Source: Hyphomicrobiales bacterium
GTDB taxonomy: Bacteria > Pseudomonadota > Alphaproteobacteria > Rhizobiales > Rhizobiaceae
Assembly: GCA_900465685.1 (NCBI GenBank)
Contig: UEGR01000013.1
Coordinates: forward strand, 124,001-188,000
Reading direction: 5' to 3'
Length of the DNA stretch: 64,000 nucleotides
The position numbers and the translations under genes were made by a program. Shown here piece by piece: positions 18,482-25,915 of this stretch. Position 1 is the stretch's first letter. Each line of letters opens with the position of its first letter. Under the pieces are notes generated by a model, which saw nothing but the letters and a program-made list of their open reading frames with translations, had not been told where the DNA came from and ran no database searches.

Positions 18482-18845
18482 GGATTATTCCCCAGAATGT
18501 GGAGCATCAGATAATGAGTGCCGAATTCGAAGAGGGCTAAAGGGGACGCCCGCCGTAGCGATCAAATGGAATATAGACATATCCGTTCCCCTTTACTCAA
18601 AGCGGCACTCGCAATTTTTACATTATCCTAGGTTGTAAAAAGCGGAAATACTTCAGAGATAACTTATTTTTAGCCGACGACATTTTTCAGGCGCTTTGTC
18701 GACTCCGACGCGCGATACATACCCTACCCATATGGATGTAGACGGATTGCCGGCTCTTCTTTTGTGACAATTCAAGGCACAATAGCTGTGGAGCAAAGGA
18801 TCCTTGAGAGCCTCGAGGGCCGGAAGCTGGTGAGGAGAAAGGGTG
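18482..18845. promoter_or_regulatory. 364-base intergenic region between LtrA gene and type I secretion locus
   Basis: No gene is supported here. AAAGGGGA near 18539 and TCCCCTTT near 18590 are complementary arms separated by roughly 45 bases, close to the LtrA start. The right half carries the promoter and leader of the first repeat protein, ending in GAGGAGAAAGGG before the ATG at 18846. No operator could be singled out. Confidence 0.4.
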
Positions 18846-19961
18846 ATGACTGAGCTACGTCCCATTTCTAACGAAAATGATAGCCTGAATGTCGGTGGTG
18901 TGCAAAACACAGCGTTGGGTACAGCTGCGGGGCATCTGGCACTCGTTCCGACGTGGCTGCCTTTCGATGTCGCATCGAGTACCCCCGGTAGTTCAGCAGG
19001 AAGTGGCGGAATGGGACTGAGCGTCGGTGTGATCAGCAGCGATGCTTCCGCTGTTTTCGTGCCCTCCAATACCGCAATCGCGGGTCCGGGCAGTGAAGCT
19101 GGCGCTGGACAGTTCAACAATGCCCTGATCAATCAGCATGTTGCTGAAATGGCGGGGATGGGCGGTGATGGCGGAAGCGGCAATGCCGCAATCGGTAGCA
19201 CGGAAGGGGCTACATCCAACCACGCGGGAAGCGGCGGCGATGGCATCTTTCTGGGCGGGCTTGTCAGCTCCGATGTTGCGGTCTTCGCCCCGGTCAATAC
19301 GGCGGTCGCGGGTGGGGCTCATTCCGTAGCGTCCGCAAATCAAACCAATAACGCGGCTTTTCTGCAAGGCGCAGATCAAATGGCAGGTATTGGCGGCTCT
19401 GGCGGTGATCATAACTATGCCGGGTCGGTATCCGCATCGCCGATACATACCGATACGGGCAGTACATATGTGTTCACCGGCGACAACTATGCCGGACATG
19501 GTGGTGCGGGCATTTTCGCAGGCACCATGATCGACGTGAATGTGGCGATCTTCTCGCCTATCAATATCGCCGTCGCCGCTGCTGGCGGCAATGCGGACGC
19601 ACATCAGACGAATAATGTGGTTTTCGATCAGGGTGGTACGCAGATCGCCGGGATTGGCGGTAATGGCGGCGGGTTCAACCTGGCGTCAGATACTATTTTT
19701 ACGGGCAATTCTGCTGCGGGAGGCGGTGGCAATGGTGTTTCGGCCGGAAGTCTGGTCGATGTGAATGTCGGCTATTTCCATCCGATCAATATTGCGGTTC
19801 CAGCTGGCGGAACGGCTGATGCCCAACAGGTAGATCATCTGCTTGTCGACCAGCATGCACTCCAATTGGCGGGCATTGGTGGTGCGGGTGGTCACGACAA
19901 TTTATCGGATACAAGCCATGATATGCTTGCACACGATATTCTTGCACTTCTGCATGCATGA
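18846..19961 (+). CDS. Four-repeat Gly/Asn-rich protein, predicted type I secretion substrate
   Basis: 371 residues from the ATG at 18846. Four repeats of about 63 residues follow a 50-residue N-terminus. They share the scheme AGxGGxG...VAxFxPxNxAVA...AxQxNN...QxAGIGGxGG..N. The protein has no Cys, no Lys and a single Arg, with many Gly, Ala, Asn, Asp and His. No N-terminal signal peptide. The C-terminus (SHDMLAHDILALLHA) is an amphipathic end, like non-RTX type I secretion signals. An ABC exporter and HlyD adaptor follow downstream. No family was recognised. I infer a secreted surface, matrix or binding protein; function unknown. Confidence 0.75.
   Translation: MTELRPISNENDSLNVGGVQNTALGTAAGHLALVPTWLPFDVASSTPGSSAGSGGMGLSVGVISSDASAVFVPSNTAIAGPGSEAGAGQFNNALINQHVAEMAGMGGDGGSGNAAIGSTEGATSNHAGSGGDGIFLGGLVSSDVAVFAPVNTAVAGGAHSVASANQTNNAAFLQGADQMAGIGGSGGDHNYAGSVSASPIHTDTGSTYVFTGDNYAGHGGAGIFAGTMIDVNVAIFSPINIAVAAAGGNADAHQTNNVVFDQGGTQIAGIGGNGGGFNLASDTIFTGNSAAGGGGNGVSAGSLVDVNVGYFHPINIAVPAGGTADAQQVDHLLVDQHALQLAGIGGAGGHDNLSDTSHDMLAHDILALLHA
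18996..19901 (+). repeat. Four protein-level repeats of about 63 codons
   Basis: Repeat units lie at about 18996-19184, 19224-19415, 19491-19679 and 19716-19901, with linkers of 13, 25 and 12 codons. The core alignments are FVPSNTAIAG, FAPVNTAVAG, FSPINIAVAA and FHPINIAVPA, and then MAGMGGDGG, MAGIGGSGG, IAGIGGNGG and LAGIGGAGG. The units have diverged but keep position and length, so duplication is old and the pattern is under selection. Confidence 0.8.
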
Positions 19962-20149
19962 TCCGCAAAAGCGGACCCACCCTAAAGTAGATATCCGAAT
20001 TTCTAGCTATTCGCACATGTACAATACGCGCACTCTTTAAGCGCGGTCGGCCACCCGATTTCGTTACGCCAACTTATGGGCGCTTTGGGTGACCAGGACC
20101 GGAGTTCAACCGAAACAGGGCAGGGGCCACAACAGGGAGGAATAAAGCG

Positions 20150-20746
20150 ATGCCTATTCCACAAGTATCCGACACAATTCATCTCAGTGACGTGCATGCC
20201 GGTGACGCCAATGCCGGTAACGGTGCTGATGGCTATAACTACGGTAATATCAACTACAATCCCAGTGCAGTCGTGGCCAACACCCAAAGCGTGGCAGGTG
20301 CTACTGTGGATGTGCACAGCGGCGATTCCCCGTGGTTAAGCGCCAGCTGGGACGCAGGCCATGCAGGTCATGGCGGTGGAGCAGACGCAGCCAATGGGTT
20401 CCTCGCCAATATCACCAATAACGGTGATGGCGGAGCTGGTGGTGATGCAAACTCCAATGGCAGCCTTGGCTCGTCAAGCGGTGGCAACGTGGGCGCAGCA
20501 ACTGCCGATACAAGCGCCGTTCAATATACCTCGCTTCTTGCCGATCAGCACGCCACTATTCTTGCAGGCGTTGGCGGTAATGGCGGTAATGGAAACATGG
20601 CACGCGGCGGCGATATCTCGGCTGCGCTCGTGCACTCAAATCCGGAAACCCACACCACAACGACGACTACCAATGATATCGCGAGCTTTGTTAATAGCTT
20701 CAACGACAATTTTCACGATATTGATCTGAGCCACATGCCGATCTGA
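20150..20746 (+). CDS. Second Gly/Asn-rich protein related to the repeat protein, predicted type I substrate
   Basis: 198 residues; a GGGAGGA ribosome site precedes the ATG. It has one unit resembling the neighbour's repeat end (LLADQHATILAGVGGNGGNGN against LLVDQHALQLAGIGGAGGHDN). The N-terminus is rich in Asn, Gly and Asp (HAGDANAGNGADGYNYGNINY). No Cys, no Lys and one Arg. The C-terminus, with a Thr run followed by FVNSFNDNFHDIDLSHMPI, resembles an uncleaved secretion signal. No N-terminal signal. Lies 188 bases after the first repeat protein and before a terminator-like hairpin and the ABC exporter. Function unknown. Confidence 0.72.
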   Translation: MPIPQVSDTIHLSDVHAGDANAGNGADGYNYGNINYNPSAVVANTQSVAGATVDVHSGDSPWLSASWDAGHAGHGGGADAANGFLANITNNGDGGAGGDANSNGSLGSSSGGNVGAATADTSAVQYTSLLADQHATILAGVGGNGGNGNMARGGDISAALVHSNPETHTTTTTTNDIASFVNSFNDNFHDIDLSHMPI

Positions 20747-20787
20747 TCGGTAGCTGGTTTATGCTTGGATCAAGAGAAATTCGATCT

Positions 20788-20822
20788 GGGAGCAACGGCT
20801 TAGGCCGCTGCTCTCCCGTTTT
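20788..20822 (+). terminator. Terminator-like hairpin before the ABC exporter gene
   Basis: GGGAGCA pairs with TGCTC-T-CCC (one bulged T), with an inner CGGC/GCCG stem and a GTTTT tail. Probably partly terminates the substrate transcript so that substrates are made in excess over the exporter. Confidence 0.6.
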
Positions 20823-20906
20823 ACCGGACTATGCCCCTAAGTTGAAGATGCGTTGCGAGCATTCGCACCGATTGTGCAGGCCCGGTATGTCAACGGAGAT
20901 TGGACG

Positions 20907-22625
20907 ATGACGGCGGCATTCGCGCAACCTCGTTATACGGTGACCCCTTTGGTCGCAGCGCTGCGTCGGTGTTACGGTGCCTTTGGTTTGGTGTTTGCCT
21001 ATAGTTGCGGATATAATATTTTCCTGCTCGCGCCTTCCATCTATCTCCTCCAGATTTATGATCGCGTTCTGTCGAGCCGCAGTGTCGACACTCTGCTGAT
21101 GCTGACGATCATCATCGCAGTGGCGGTCGTGGTCGGGTCGTTGCTCGATATCGTGCGCCGCGCTGCATTGTCACGGATCGGTAGCTGGCTCGATCACCAG
21201 TTGCGCCCTATTGTCATGAACGCATCGTTCGAATATGCGGCACGCGCTGACGCGGGAGCCGCTGCAGAACATTATCGCGACCTTTCGGTTCTACGCCAAT
21301 TTCTGGATTCACCGTCCTGCGCATTGTTGTTTGACCTGCCATGGGCTCCGGTTTTTCTCGCATTGCTCTTTCTGGTCCACCCGCTGCTTGGTTTTATCGG
21401 ACTGGGCAGCGCTGTGATCTTACTGTTTTTGGCGATGCTCAACGAGTTTGTGACACGGGAACTGAACGAACAGGCAAACCTCGCACAGGCGCGAAGCCAT
21501 TCCCGCTTTATAATGGCGCTGAAATATATCGGCGTTATTCGCGCGATGGGCATGCAGCAAGGCGCGGCGCACCTCATCTATCGAGATGCTGAAGCCGTCA
21601 GAGCGGCTCAGGACAGTGTGATAAGAAGGACCGAGATTGTTTTGGCATTTTCGAAATCGGTACGCACACTGACGCAGATTGTGATGATGGGTGCGGCGAC
21701 ATGGCTCGTGCTGCAAAACAACAGCAATCCCGGAATTATTTTTGTTGCCAGTCTGCTTCTCGGGCGTGGGCTGGCGCCGGTTGAGGGCGCGATTGGGGCC
21801 TGGCGGGCGCTGGCTTTTGTCCGCGGTGCGTTCAATCGCCTGAACCGGATGCTCACACTCATTGTTCCCGGAGAGGATAGACGAACCATTCTTGTGCCAG
21901 AACCCAAGGGCCAGCTGGTCCTCGATAATGTTGGCTATCGGTTGCCGTCATCGGATCGTTTCATTTTGCGGGGCGTATCGTTTCAAGTGGCGGCGGGCGA
22001 TTGCGTGGCGCTAATCGGTCCCTCTGGCTCGGGCAAATCCACACTTGGGCGAATTTTGGCGGGTGTTTCACGGCCGACATGTGGATGTGCCCTTTTGGGT
22101 GGCATCGACATTTCCTTGCTACGCCATTGCGACAATGCCCGTCACATTGGCTATCTTCCTCAGGACATCGAGCTTTTTGGTGGTGCGATCAAGGATGTTA
22201 TAGGTCGGCTCGATGGTTCGGACCCACAAAAGGTGATCGACGCCGCAAAACTGGTTGGGCTGCATGAGGCGATCATGCGGTTGCCGCAGGGCTATGAGAC
22301 GGATATCGGCGAAGGGGGCGCTCTTCTCCTCCGGGCGCAGCGCCAGCAATTGGGATTGGCGCGCGCTGCCTACGGAAATCCACCTCTTGTGGTGCTCGAC
22401 GATCCGAATTCAAGTCTCGACTATGAAGGCGAGCGCCTGTTGTTTGACGCGATTGAGCGCATGAAATGCAGGCAGATCACAATTGTCATCATCACCCATC
22501 GAATGGGCATATTGCCCGTGACGGACAAGATCGCCGTGATGCGGGATGGTATGGTCAGCGCCTTTGGTGATAGCGAGAAAATCTTCGATGCTTTCCTTCG
22601 CGTGCCCGCGAAAACTGGACCATGA
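20907..22625 (+). CDS. PrtD-type type I secretion ABC exporter with degenerate signature motif
   Basis: 572 residues from the ATG at 20907 (GGAG eight bases upstream). The N-terminal membrane domain (about residues 20-310) has NIFLLAPSIYLLQIYDRVLSSRSVDTLLMLT and DLPWAPVFLALLFLVHPLLGF, hallmarks of the PrtD/HasD/PrsD group. The ATPase domain has Walker A GPSGSGKST and Q-loop YLPQDIELFGG. The signature reads LLRAQ instead of LSGGQ, and Walker B reads VVLDDPNSSLD with Asp in place of the catalytic Glu. The H-loop His is present (ITHRMG). Predicted to export the neighbouring repeat proteins; the ATPase may be slow or altered. Confidence 0.9.
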   Translation: MTAAFAQPRYTVTPLVAALRRCYGAFGLVFAYSCGYNIFLLAPSIYLLQIYDRVLSSRSVDTLLMLTIIIAVAVVVGSLLDIVRRAALSRIGSWLDHQLRPIVMNASFEYAARADAGAAAEHYRDLSVLRQFLDSPSCALLFDLPWAPVFLALLFLVHPLLGFIGLGSAVILLFLAMLNEFVTRELNEQANLAQARSHSRFIMALKYIGVIRAMGMQQGAAHLIYRDAEAVRAAQDSVIRRTEIVLAFSKSVRTLTQIVMMGAATWLVLQNNSNPGIIFVASLLLGRGLAPVEGAIGAWRALAFVRGAFNRLNRMLTLIVPGEDRRTILVPEPKGQLVLDNVGYRLPSSDRFILRGVSFQVAAGDCVALIGPSGSGKSTLGRILAGVSRPTCGCALLGGIDISLLRHCDNARHIGYLPQDIELFGGAIKDVIGRLDGSDPQKVIDAAKLVGLHEAIMRLPQGYETDIGEGGALLLRAQRQQLGLARAAYGNPPLVVLDDPNSSLDYEGERLLFDAIERMKCRQITIVIITHRMGILPVTDKIAVMRDGMVSAFGDSEKIFDAFLRVPAKTGP

Positions 22626-22637
22626 AGGAGCATTACA

Positions 22638-24077
22638 ATGGCACTGGTCCATCTTGATGTTCCATTGAGGGTCGCAAACGCTTTCAAATCCCATATGGCG
22701 CTGGTTGCGCAGCAGCTGATATTGTGGCGGCTCGCGTCTCCGCCGATGCTTGCACATCAACGTAACACATTGCCAGCACCATTGACCTCCAGGCCAAGGC
22801 TGCGCGGGGTTGCCTGGACAGGAAATATGCTGGTTTTGACGTTCTTAGCCGGGTTTGGATTATGGGCAATGCTGGCGCCGCTCAAAAGTGCGGCGGTTGC
22901 GGTGGGTATCGTCGAAGCGGAGACCAGCCGTAAAACCATTCAGCATCTGGAAGGCGGCATTGTCCAGCAGATTTATGTCCACAATGGAGATTTGGTTTCT
23001 TCCGGGCAGGTGTTGATCAAGCTTGATGATACCAAGCCGAGGACGGAGCTTGTCGGTGTGCAAGGTCAATTGTGGGATGCTGAGGCAAGCCGCGCACGGC
23101 TGGTCGCGGAGCAGGGAAATGAGACAGAACTCGTGTTTCCGACTGAGTTGGTGCGACTTGTCTCGAAAAACCCGGCGGTAAACGCGATTGTGGTGGGGCA
23201 GCGTAGAATCTTTGAAGCACGGCGCGATGTCTACCAATCTGAAATCGCCATCACACATGAAAAAATGGAGCAGGTGAAGCAGGAGATCACCGGTCTGGTA
23301 GCCCAGAAACTGGCGCTGTCGTCGCGGGTGGAAATTACACGTCAGCAGTTGGACATGATTGATCCTTTGGTGAAGAAAGGTCTTGAACGCAAAACGAGCC
23401 TGCTGAACCTCGCGCGGGAAAAAGCGGACCTTGATGGACAATTTGGAGAAACGACGGCTCAGATTTCCCGTGCTTATCAGGTTATCAATGAGGCGCAGGC
23501 CAATCTCATCAAGCTGGAAAGCGACCGGCAAAACGAGATCGCAAAGGAACTGCGTGATACTGAAAACCAGCTGTTTCTGTTGAACGAACGATATCGCGCC
23601 ATTGATGATCAGTTGAACCGCACGGCGATCAAGGCACCAGAGACGGGAATTGTCATGGATCTGCGCATTCATACGACAGGCGGAGTGATTGGTGCAGGTG
23701 AACCGTTGCTCGATCTGGTGCCGCAGGATGGTAATATGGTTGTGTCCGCCCATGTCAGACCTGAAGATATCCATCTTGTCCATCCGGGTCTGAATGCGCA
23801 GGTGCACCTGTTGCCCTATGATCAACGGCGCGTGCCGCTTTTAAAAGGGAAGGTCACTTATGTTTCTGCTGATCGCCTGTTGGACAAAGTAACGGGTCAG
23901 CCCTTCTATGCCGCAACGATTCGTGTCACCGATGATGAATTGATGCAGGCAGGAGACATAGAAATGATCCCCGGAATGCCGGTTCAAGCTTTGATCGAGA
24001 CTGGTGAGAGCAGTGTCGCTCTTTACGCTGTCAGGCCGTTGCTGGATAGTTTCCATCGCGCTTTCCGCGAGAACTGA
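22638..24077 (+). CDS. HlyD/PrtE-type membrane fusion protein of the type I exporter
   Basis: 479 residues. An N-terminal cytoplasmic stretch of about 60 residues precedes a single transmembrane helix (NMLVLTFLAGFGLWAMLAPL). Then come a biotinyl-lipoyl-like half (KTIQHLEGGIVQQIYVHNGDLVSSGQVLIKLDD), a long coiled coil (about residues 180-320), and the closing half-motif (IKAPETGIVMDLRIHTTGGVIGAGEPLLDLVP) with a C-terminal barrel. It bridges the inner-membrane ABC exporter to a TolC-like outer-membrane channel, which is not encoded in the window. Starts 12 bases after the ABC gene. Confidence 0.93.
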   Translation: MALVHLDVPLRVANAFKSHMALVAQQLILWRLASPPMLAHQRNTLPAPLTSRPRLRGVAWTGNMLVLTFLAGFGLWAMLAPLKSAAVAVGIVEAETSRKTIQHLEGGIVQQIYVHNGDLVSSGQVLIKLDDTKPRTELVGVQGQLWDAEASRARLVAEQGNETELVFPTELVRLVSKNPAVNAIVVGQRRIFEARRDVYQSEIAITHEKMEQVKQEITGLVAQKLALSSRVEITRQQLDMIDPLVKKGLERKTSLLNLAREKADLDGQFGETTAQISRAYQVINEAQANLIKLESDRQNEIAKELRDTENQLFLLNERYRAIDDQLNRTAIKAPETGIVMDLRIHTTGGVIGAGEPLLDLVPQDGNMVVSAHVRPEDIHLVHPGLNAQVHLLPYDQRRVPLLKGKVTYVSADRLLDKVTGQPFYAATIRVTDDELMQAGDIEMIPGMPVQALIETGESSVALYAVRPLLDSFHRAFREN

Positions 24078-24088
24078 ACGCCGTCGGC

Positions 24089-24847
24089 CTATTGCACCGT
24101 GTTGATGCCGGGAGAATTTCTTGAGCCAAGCAGAAGCACCACCTCTGTTCGGTTCTGCACGCGCAACTTGCGCATGATATGTTGCAGATGCATCTTCACG
24201 GTATTGCCCGACATGTTGAGCTTTTCCGCAATAATCTTGTTTGAATGACCACGCTGAAGTTCGGTAAGTACATCGACTTCCCGCGGTGTAAAACCCGCTA
24301 TGGTTGCCTGTCTGGGAGTGGGGTTCATGGTTTCATTGTCATCGACATTTTGTTCTTCCAGAGCTGACTTGCCGGTGATGGAGATTGTCGGCTGGATGCT
24401 GGCCTGTGCGCCCAGCGGATGCGGACAGAATACTCCGCCCGCGAGCACCAACCGTACACCTGCCAATGCAATTTCTATTGGAAGAGACGATGTGAAGAAG
24501 CCTCGCACTCCCATTTTGATCGCTTCCGACTCCATGAGGATATCGTCCCGGTTGGAAAGCAAGGCAATGGAGGCTGCCGGGAAATGGGTTTGAGCCGCCA
24601 GCAAATCTTCCAGCAGGGTTGGACTGTCGATAGCCCGCCCCGCCAGATCCAGCGCGATAAGAGCGACATCCCTTCCAATTGCCTTGGCCAACTCGGCTGT
24701 AGAAGCCATATCGATAAAATCCCACCCGGCGAGTTCGTGAGCGAGGAATTTAACGACACATGTGCGTGCAAGCGTATGTTTGGCCACAATGATCATGGTC
24801 GGAAGGCTGCGCATTCTGCGCTGCTTTTTCTCAAGATCGGTTGACAC
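24089..24847 (-). CDS. LuxR/NarL-type response regulator-like protein
   Basis: 252 residues. The C-terminal GerE-type helix-turn-helix is clear (GFTPREVDVLTELQRGHSNKIIAEKLNMSGNTVKMHLQHIMRKLRVQNRTE). The N-terminal half resembles a receiver domain (IIVAKHTLARTCV...DVALIALDLAG...IALLSNRDD...GVRGFFTSS). The usual acidic pair after the first strand is replaced (VAKH), though the phospho-acceptor-like Asp remains. Phosphorylation is therefore doubtful. It converges on the HlyD gene with a 12-base gap, and no histidine kinase is near. Likely regulator of the secretion locus, by position only. Confidence 0.82.
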   Translation of the reverse strand: MSTDLEKKQRRMRSLPTMIIVAKHTLARTCVVKFLAHELAGWDFIDMASTAELAKAIGRDVALIALDLAGRAIDSPTLLEDLLAAQTHFPAASIALLSNRDDILMESEAIKMGVRGFFTSSLPIEIALAGVRLVLAGGVFCPHPLGAQASIQPTISITGKSALEEQNVDDNETMNPTPRQATIAGFTPREVDVLTELQRGHSNKIIAEKLNMSGNTVKMHLQHIMRKLRVQNRTEVVLLLGSRNSPGINTVQ

Positions 24848-25306: not shown

Positions 25307-25915
25307 ATGAAGCGGGATATTACGGTCACAATTGCCGTGCTAGCTGCCGGACGATCATCACGCATGGGGGGGGCAAACAAGCTGCTCGCCATTTTTGACG
25401 GCAAACCATTGGTGCGCCGTTCCGTTGAGGCTGCAATGCAAGCCGATAGCGGTAGTGTCATCGTTGTCACCGGCCATATGGCGGAAGATATTGCGGCGGT
25501 GCTAAAGGGGCTGGACGTCGCTATCGTTCACAACCCGGATTACGCCAATGGTCTTGCGAGTTCGATCACGACAGCTCTTTTGGCAATACCGGCGGGGTCT
25601 GACGGGGTGATGATCCATCTGGGTGATATGCCCGCCGTCAATACGCAGCACATCCGCGCGATGATTGACAGTTTCCGCGAACATGAAGGAAATGCTGTCA
25701 TTCGCGCCGTTACTGACGCGGGCGAGCGGGGTAATCCTTGCATTCTACCACGACAGCTTTTTGACGCGCTTTCTGCTCTTCACGGCGATGTTGGTGCAAG
25801 GCATGTCATTGAGGCGAGTGGAATTCCCGTTATTGAAGTTTCAATCGGCGTCGCAGCCAGAATCGATGTCGATACGAGAGATGCAGTCCTGAAAGCAGGC
25901 GGTCTGATTGCTTGA
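25307..25915 (+). CDS. MobA/MocA-like nucleotidyltransferase
   Basis: 202 residues. The N-terminal NTP-transferase signature (VLAAGRSSRMGGANKLLAIFDGKPLV) and the metal-binding segment (GVMIHLGDMPAVNTQHI) place it with MocA/MobA-type molybdenum cofactor nucleotidyltransferases. MocA makes the cytosine dinucleotide form used by the xanthine-dehydrogenase family, so it could serve the hydroxylase at 7.5-12.4 kb, about 12 kb away. Its immediate neighbour is aconitase X, which needs no molybdenum. The signature is encoded partly by a G8 run (25366-25373), a possible slippage site. The exact substrate is an inference. Confidence 0.82.
   Translation: MKRDITVTIAVLAAGRSSRMGGANKLLAIFDGKPLVRRSVEAAMQADSGSVIVVTGHMAEDIAAVLKGLDVAIVHNPDYANGLASSITTALLAIPAGSDGVMIHLGDMPAVNTQHIRAMIDSFREHEGNAVIRAVTDAGERGNPCILPRQLFDALSALHGDVGARHVIEASGIPVIEVSIGVAARIDVDTRDAVLKAGGLIA

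What the first reader, a model, noticed from the sequence alone, without database searches (positions are those of the whole stretch)
18846..24847. Type I secretion locus with lysine- and cysteine-free repeat proteins and its own regulator
Two neighbouring genes encode Gly/Asn/Asp/His-rich proteins with no Cys, no Lys and a single Arg each. The first has four 63-residue repeats (AGxGGxG...FxPxNxAVA...QxNN...QxAGIGGxGG), and the second has one related unit. Neither has an N-terminal signal, but both lie directly upstream of a PrtD-type ABC exporter and an HlyD adaptor, with a LuxR-type regulator convergent. No RTX nonapeptide is present, so these look like a distinct class of type I substrates. 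Their acidic, His-rich, repeat-built nature suggests surface-layer, matrix or metal-binding use. I know of no described system matching this.
Basis: partly seen in the sequence, partly recalled or inferred. Interest (0 to 1): 0.8.

Follow-up and report, generated by a model that had tools for sequence, protein, structure and literature searches.

The report
Orphan exporter and its glycine-rich cargo
Soil and root bacteria share a five-gene set that appears to export two glycine-rich proteins through a dedicated pump whose ATP-binding motif is consistently abnormal; in one root-nodule bacterium that pump was reported in 2008 with no known cargo.

Summary
P1 (371 aa) has four 62-64-residue repeats; P2 (198 aa) carries one related, split unit. 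Both lack Cys and Lys, have one Arg, and precede a PrtD-type ABC exporter and an HlyD adaptor, with a convergent LuxR-type regulator.

The set is a conserved module. All five genes were found in 133 of 136 P1-positive loci (Bradyrhizobium 51/52, Rhizobium 75/76, the window's genus 7/8), in two gene orders; the three exceptions sit at contig ends. No module exporter was found in 44 P1-negative genomes of the same genera.

In R. leguminosarum 3841 this exporter is TobDE, reported in 2008 as an 'enigmatic' type I system without substrate. P1 and P2 are its likely cargo; few Lys/Arg residues make them poor targets for trypsin mass spectrometry.

New here: 134 of 134 module exporters have Arg at position 3 of the ABC signature (LLRAQ, FSRGY, LPRGF), against 0 of 50 other PrtD exporters read. 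All 83 Rhizobium and window-genus copies also have Asp for the Walker B Glu.

'Lysine-free' is not conserved. Secretion and function are inferred.

The parts
18735..18783 (+). Conserved upstream block of P1 (GATGTAGAC..., CCGGCTCTTCTTTT, ...GGCACAAT); candidate promoter or regulator site
   Evidence: With <=2 mismatches: CCGGCTCTTCTTTT in 6 of 6 loci of the window's genus, 55 of 76 Rhizobium (most often at -90), 0 of 52 Bradyrhizobium; GATGTAGAC-N3-ATT in 5 of 6, 55 of 76, 1 of 52; the GGCACAAT part in 6 of 6, 0 of 76, 0 of 52; none of the three upstream of P2. Function not tested; rows are related.
18846..19961 (+). P1, 371-aa Gly/Ala/Ser/Asn-rich repeat protein, predicted type I substrate
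18996..19184 (+). P1 repeat core 1 (residues 51-113)
19224..19415 (+). P1 repeat core 2 (residues 127-190)
19491..19679 (+). P1 repeat core 3 (residues 216-278)
19716..19901 (+). P1 repeat core 4 (residues 291-352)
20150..20746 (+). P2, 198-aa protein with one P1-like unit split by an insertion; homologues annotated 'PE-PGRS family protein' in five plasmid records
20907..22625 (+). P3, PrtD-type ABC exporter, orthologue of TobD
   Evidence: TIGR01842, 544.7 bits against cut-off 510.15; tree
22326..22340 (+). Degenerate ABC signature LLRAQ (residues 474-478) where other PrtD exporters mostly have LSGGQ or LSAGQ
22401..22403 (+). Walker B catalytic position is Asp499 instead of Glu
22638..24077 (+). 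P4, HlyD-type adaptor, orthologue of TobE
   Evidence: TIGR01843, 367.5 bits against cut-off 208.65; linkage
24089..24847 (-). P5, NarL/LuxR-type regulator with an atypical receiver-like N-terminus
   Evidence: GerE HTH; no Response_reg Pfam hit at E<=1; the usual phospho-Asp position reads D, N, S or G across the 18 homologues aligned

Best explanation
The five genes form one dedicated type I secretion module, orthologous to the substrate-less TobDE exporter of R. leguminosarum 3841. TobD/TobE (P3/P4), with an outer-membrane TolC-like channel encoded elsewhere (inferred), export P1 and P2 in one step using C-terminal signals (inferred from the tails). Outside the cell P1 folds as a repeat protein, and P2, which has a single split unit, acts as a partner or cap (inferred). 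The most likely use is a surface or matrix component in soil and root life (inferred, about 40%). P5 controls P1, perhaps through the conserved upstream block (inferred). The ABC subunit keeps Walker A, Q-loop and H-loop but has an Arg-bearing signature; if it is a homodimer, both ATP sites are non-canonical, suggesting slow or regulated ATP turnover. Shown by sequence: module linkage, joint absence, orthology, conservation and the motif change. Not shown: secretion, structure, function.
For: Linkage in 133 of 136 P1 loci, in two gene orders: P1>P2>ABC>HlyD> <P5, and <HlyD<ABC<P2 P1>P5>. Of 17 plasmid records with P1 I examined 14: 12 have all five genes; in the other two the module is decayed and the module ABC is not found; several of these records are the same replicons as loci among the 136. 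In 44 P1-negative genomes of the same three genera no match to P3 exceeds 41% identity (38 have a match at E<=1e-70, 6 have none), whereas module ABCs in the loci are at least 52% identical to P3. Module ABCs form one side of a branch with 100/100 support, 42 module against 26 other sequences. All five genes have low dN/dS. The Q-loop Gln and H-loop His are invariant in the 10 module and 1 other ABC aligned. Strain 3841: contig G950:C1 is 5,057,142 bases, the chromosome length in PMC1557990 Table 1; its three above-cut-off PrtD genes lie at 91.5, 670.9 and 3,854 kb, in the order of RL0072, RL0623 and RL3658 in PMC2275737. Tryptic peptides of 700-4000 Da: window P1 0, P2 0; 3841 P1 1, P2 2. Recurrent tails such as HSALVDDILSFMHS and HLLSDLHL.
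Against: No secretion data. In 2008 tobD mutants, also combined with toaD and prsD, showed no effect of their own on supernatant gels, growth on plates, biofilm rings or pea nodulation (PMC2275737 passages; nodulation is reported there for the single mutants); the authors also considered that Tob may not export protein. 3841 P2 has 3 Lys and two usable tryptic peptides, so trypsin alone does not hide it. No TolC gene is in the module. The rows are related, so counts are not independent events.
Confidence: 0.72

Rival explanations
1. The Arg-signature ABC does not work as a homodimer; it pairs with a canonical PrtD subunit encoded elsewhere, giving a mixed exporter.
For: 34 of 34 module-positive genomes tested (of 136) have at least one further PrtD. 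In the window's genus, 7 of 7 module-positive genomes (own; six) against 10 of 16 negatives (a different query and threshold) have one; Fisher p 0.12.
Against: The module carries its own HlyD and no second ABC. A canonical partner would leave one defect in each site, unlike the known asymmetric exporters described in PMC7756269 (passages), where signature and Walker B defects fall in the same composite site. Other PrtDs are common anyway (43 of 61 genomes of an order-wide draw have one above cut-off), so co-occurrence says little.
Confidence: 0.2
2. The exporter is catalytically dead and the locus is decaying.
For: Signature and, in one clade, Walker B depart from consensus. Two plasmid loci and one assembly of the window's genus are visibly broken.
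Against: dN/dS of the ABC is 0.036-0.037 in three comparisons. Arg at signature position 3 recurs in 134 of 134 copies, with Walker A intact in the 132 copies read. In the two decayed plasmid loci the module ABC is not found rather than kept with the odd motif.
Confidence: 0.06
3. P1 and P2 are diffusible secreted factors (metal-binding, signalling or antagonistic) rather than structural.
For: Small (36 and 19 kDa), acidic, some His (4-5%). A 2021 study of nodulation in R. leguminosarum lists a chromosomal 'PE-PGRS family protein' and a hypothetical protein with the same strain distribution among genes tied to the ability to form nodules (PMC8457355 passage); not verified to be P2 and P1.
Against: No enzyme, toxin or binding family was found. 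The repeat-built architecture fits a structural role better (judgement).
Confidence: 0.3

Closest known systems
TobDE of Rhizobium leguminosarum bv. viciae 3841 (RL0623/RL0622; PMC2275737, passages read)
   Same: Orthologous exporter pair; the paper also notes a B. japonicum homologue at 52% identity with similar surrounding genes
   Different: The passages read name no substrate or regulator and do not mention the signature motif; the two Gly-rich neighbours are not named there
PrsDE/PrtDEF-type T1SS with RTX or Rap substrates
   Same: PrtD-type ABC plus HlyD adaptor
   Different: P1 and P2 have no RTX match; the ABC signature carries Arg, unlike PrsD and ToaD of 3841
Asymmetric ABC exporters with one degenerate site (reviewed in PMC7756269, passages read)
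   Same: Signature deviation with Walker B Glu to Asp
   Different: Here both changes lie in one ABC polypeptide, so a homodimer would have two degenerate sites
Curli (CsgA/CsgB/CsgD), recalled
   Same: Two repeat proteins plus a LuxR-type regulator with an atypical receiver (resemblance only)
   Different: No Curlin match; window P1 and P2 match no Pfam family at E<=1; type I instead of CsgG export

Membership tests
Type I secretion system (PrtD/HlyD type) | PrtD-type ABC protein | tested here: met
   Window P3 above the TIGR01842 cut-off. In one search, 8 of 22 Bradyrhizobium module ABCs fall just below it (491-507 bits against 510.15).
Type I secretion system (PrtD/HlyD type) | HlyD-family adaptor | tested here: met
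   TIGR01843 above cut-off
Type I secretion system (PrtD/HlyD type) | TolC-like outer-membrane channel | not tested
   None in the module; the genome was not searched for it
Type I secretion system (PrtD/HlyD type) | Secretion of the linked proteins through a C-terminal signal | not testable with these tools
   Recurrent tails; no experiment
TobDE | Orthology and position in strain 3841 | tested here: met
RTX proteins | Ca-binding nonapeptide repeats | tested here: not met
   No Pfam match at E<=1
Canonical ABC exporter | LSGGQ-type signature | tested here: not met
   Arg at position 3 in 134 of 134
Canonical ABC exporter | Walker A intact | tested here: met
   GPSGSGKS, GSSGSGKS or GASGSGKS in all 132 copies read of 134
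PE-PGRS (annotation label of P2) | PE domain | tested here: not met
   No Pfam family in any of 16 P2 proteins at E<=0.1
Curli subunits | Curlin repeat | tested here: not met
   No Curlin match in the window proteins or in 14 P1 and 16 P2 members at E<=0.1
Two-component response regulator | Receiver domain with conserved phospho-Asp | tested here: not met
   No PF00072 hit at E<=1; position varies D/N/S/G in 18 homologues

The most novel reading that the evidence does not exclude
A whole clade of protein exporters in Hyphomicrobiales runs as symmetric ABC homodimers in which both composite ATP sites are permanently degenerate (Arg in the signature; in one clade also Asp for the catalytic Glu), so export is driven by slow or binding-only ATP cycling, and this is tied to a single cargo family of Gly-rich repeat proteins.
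Probability: 0.45. Interest if true: 0.82.

Novelty: new variant of a known kind. Interest (0 to 1): 0.62.

Why it matters
It offers cargo for a type I exporter reported as substrate-less in 2008 and a reason why standard proteomics could miss it, which makes an open question directly testable in a strain for which a tobD mutant is published. If the ABC works as a homodimer, it would be a conserved natural exporter with two non-canonical ATP sites, a case that bears on how ATP binding and hydrolysis drive protein translocation.

Tried and rejected
Solved structures: P1 alone and the P1 profile matched only ribosomal protein L6 (best E 0.0027 and 0.019), judged a Gly-rich chance match; the P2 profile matched nothing at E<=0.1. 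Pfam on the family members: DUF4774 (4 of 14 P1 members, best E 0.0055) and Abhydro_lipase (1 of 14, E 0.0064), not taken as real; P2 none of 16. NCBIfam gave P2 one weak hit (yjeF_nterm, E 0.052, 13 bits against a cut-off of 89), rejected. PADLOC: only generic ATPase and HTH matches to P3 and P5, rejected as defence evidence. Phage records: 42 with distant ABC matches, all under 60% identity; the best-ranked covers 97% of P3 at 37%. Tandem Repeats Finder found no DNA arrays in the window. Class-wide search with the P2 profile: 1 of 385 genomes, the window's own. Order-wide search with a P1 profile made from the window's genus: 6 of 397, own included. A heterodimer partner was sought by co-occurrence and is not decided. 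No palindromic operator was sought systematically or established. Literature: 10 searches in an open-licence library; in their listings and the passages read I found no paper naming a TobDE substrate or this signature variant in PrtD exporters, but most subscription papers are not held. Passages were read of PMC2275737, PMC7756269, PMC8457355 and PMC1557990; of all other papers only search listings were seen.
Full report
WHAT IS THERE. The window lies in a member of the genus that public records call Brucella or Ochrobactrum (G000:C17; named relatives). P1 has four repeat cores of 62-64 residues, z 9.3-15.7 against shuffles; P2 matches P1 above shuffles (148 against a maximum of 112 in 200) and reads as one unit split by an insertion. 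P3 and P4 pass the PrtD and HlyD models; P5 has a LuxR-type HTH. Neither P1 nor P2 matches Pfam, NCBIfam (one weak chance hit for P2) or PADLOC families, or a convincing solved structure.

IT IS A MODULE. P1 was found in 8 of 60 genomes of the 'relatives' draw, own included, in 52 of 146 genomes of genus g43 (Bradyrhizobium) and in 76 of 148 of genus g27 (Rhizobium, which here includes a record named Sinorhizobium sp. B11), one match per genome in the last two. In wider draws it is rare: P1 in 6 of 397 genomes of the order, own included, P2 in 1 of 385 of the class. I fetched all 136 genus-level loci. All five genes are present in 51 of 52, 75 of 76 and 7 of 8; the three exceptions end at a contig edge. 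Two gene orders occur: P1, P2, ABC, HlyD co-directional with P5 convergent (51 Bradyrhizobium, 11 Rhizobium, 7 of the window's genus), and P1 divergent from P2-ABC-HlyD with P5 downstream of P1 (64 Rhizobium); one further Rhizobium locus cut by the contig end lacks P5. Conserved membership despite rearrangement speaks for function. Of 17 plasmid records with P1 I examined 14: 12 have all five genes; Phyllobacterium A18/5-2 and Rhizobium CC1099 have decayed modules in which the module ABC is not found. Several of these plasmids are replicons already among the 136. Conversely, I searched 44 P1-negative genomes with P3 (16 of 26 of the window's genus, 14 of 94 Bradyrhizobium, 14 of 72 Rhizobium): the best match is 41% identical and six genomes have none at E<=1e-70, below the 52% minimum of module ABCs against P3. 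So exporter and cargo come and go together in what was sampled.

IT IS TobDE. PMC2275737 (passages read) describes four type I systems in R. leguminosarum 3841. Two, ToaDE and TobDE, were 'enigmatic': no secreted protein depended on them, and TobD had a B. japonicum homologue at 52% identity with similar surroundings. Genome G950 has a contig of 5,057,142 bases, the published 3841 chromosome length (PMC1557990 Table 1), and three above-cut-off PrtD genes at 91.5, 670.9 and 3,854 kb, in the order of RL0072, RL0623 and RL3658. The middle one is the module ABC (LLRAQ). P1 and P2 are therefore the obvious candidates for the missing cargo. They would be hard to see by the methods used there, SDS gels and tryptic MALDI. 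In silico, window P1 and P2 give no tryptic peptide of 700-4000 Da; 3841 P1 gives one and P2 two, so P2 is poor but not invisible. Poor Coomassie staining of proteins with few basic residues is recalled, not tested. Against this: that study found no phenotype for tobD mutants, single or combined.

THE EXPORTER IS ODD. Walker A is intact in all 132 copies read, but the signature reads LLRAQ (LLRSQ once) in 76 of 76 Rhizobium and 7 of 7 copies of the window's genus, and FSRGY, LPRGF and close variants in 51 of 51 Bradyrhizobium: Arg at position 3 in 134 of 134 (one of these is the broken B. cytisi copy, read in one piece). The Walker B catalytic Glu is Asp in the 83 Rhizobium and window-genus copies and Glu in the 51 Bradyrhizobium copies. 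Control: of the 77 PrtD matches I read 50 (30 given as loci, 20 chosen by me). LSAGQ and LSGGQ dominate; single or few copies read ISGGQ, VSGGQ, VSAGQ, LSEGQ, LAAGQ, PSGGQ or LSGGM. 0 of 50 have Arg and 50 of 50 have the Walker B Glu. Of the other 27, two are module members, one is the window genome's second PrtD (LSGGQ) and 24 were not read. The ten best P3 relatives in P1-negative genomes (LSGGQ or LSGGF), and PrsD and ToaD of 3841, also lack Arg. Module ABCs form one clade, 42 against 26 sequences, 100/100 (17 Bradyrhizobium and 18 Rhizobium drawn at random, strain 3841, 6 of the window's genus; the controls are every second one of the 50 plus the window genome's second PrtD; one drawn row was dropped by the script's filters). 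dN/dS of the ABC is 0.036-0.037, so this is not decay. In asymmetric exporters reviewed in PMC7756269 (passages) the signature and Walker B defects fall in one composite site; here they are in one polypeptide, so a homodimer would have two degenerate sites. A mixed dimer with another PrtD is not excluded: 34 of 34 tested module genomes have one.

REGULATION. P5 lacks a recognisable receiver in Pfam and its usual phospho-Asp varies. Upstream of P1, CCGGCTCTTCTTTT (<=2 mismatches) occurs in 6 of 6 loci of the window's genus and 55 of 76 Rhizobium, but 0 of 52 Bradyrhizobium; the neighbouring GGCACAAT part is confined to the window's genus. Whether P5 binds there is unknown.

CORRECTIONS TO THE FINDING. 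Lys-free composition is local: Rhizobium P1 has median 1 Lys, Bradyrhizobium P2 4-16. 'PE-PGRS' is only an annotation label. The surface, matrix or metal role remains open; I put a structural role at about 40%.

LIMITS. No experiment, no structure model, related sequences counted as rows, an open-licence library only. Outer-membrane channel not searched.

Noticed in passing
window:25916-27730 (+): cis-3-hydroxy-L-proline dehydratase (NF051439, 909 bits against cut-off 700), next to a MocA-like gene at 25307-25915 that scores below its model's cut-off.
   Followed up: no
window:9472-13442 (+): 975-aa molybdenum hydroxylase-like protein scoring far below every equivalog cut-off listed, followed by an XdhC-like protein, also below cut-off.
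   Followed up: no
window:51018-53657 (-): 879-aa protein with an autotransporter beta-barrel domain (TIGR01414), another predicted surface protein.
   Followed up: no
L035:3244-3516, L037:3257-3535, L043:3392-3670: A small ORF annotated 'transposase' sits just beyond HlyD in three of the four annotated Rhizobium-type plasmid loci (not listed); the L037 product was translated.
   Followed up: partly
L017 (Brucella cytisi LMG 22713): Several module genes are interrupted in this assembly; error or real decay cannot be told apart.
   Followed up: no
L040 (Phyllobacterium A18/5-2), L048 (Rhizobium CC1099): Decayed modules: L040 keeps pieces of P1 and P2, L048 pieces of P1 and HlyD; the module ABC is not found in either stretch.
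   Followed up: partly
PMC8457355, table passage: Nodulation candidates PAFN15 ('PE-PGRS family protein') and PAFN16 (hypothetical) are chromosomal with identical strain distribution; they might be P2 and P1 but this was not verified.
   Followed up: no
L269, L276: Two of the ten nearest non-module PrtD relatives, both in Bradyrhizobium genomes, carry LSGGF, a last-position change also seen in some Bradyrhizobium module copies.
   Followed up: no
L037:11619-11975: PLSDB's gene table marks a 'hypothetical protein' near the module of Rhizobium sp. CCGE532 as a predicted OXA-type gene; looks like an automatic call, not examined.
   Followed up: no
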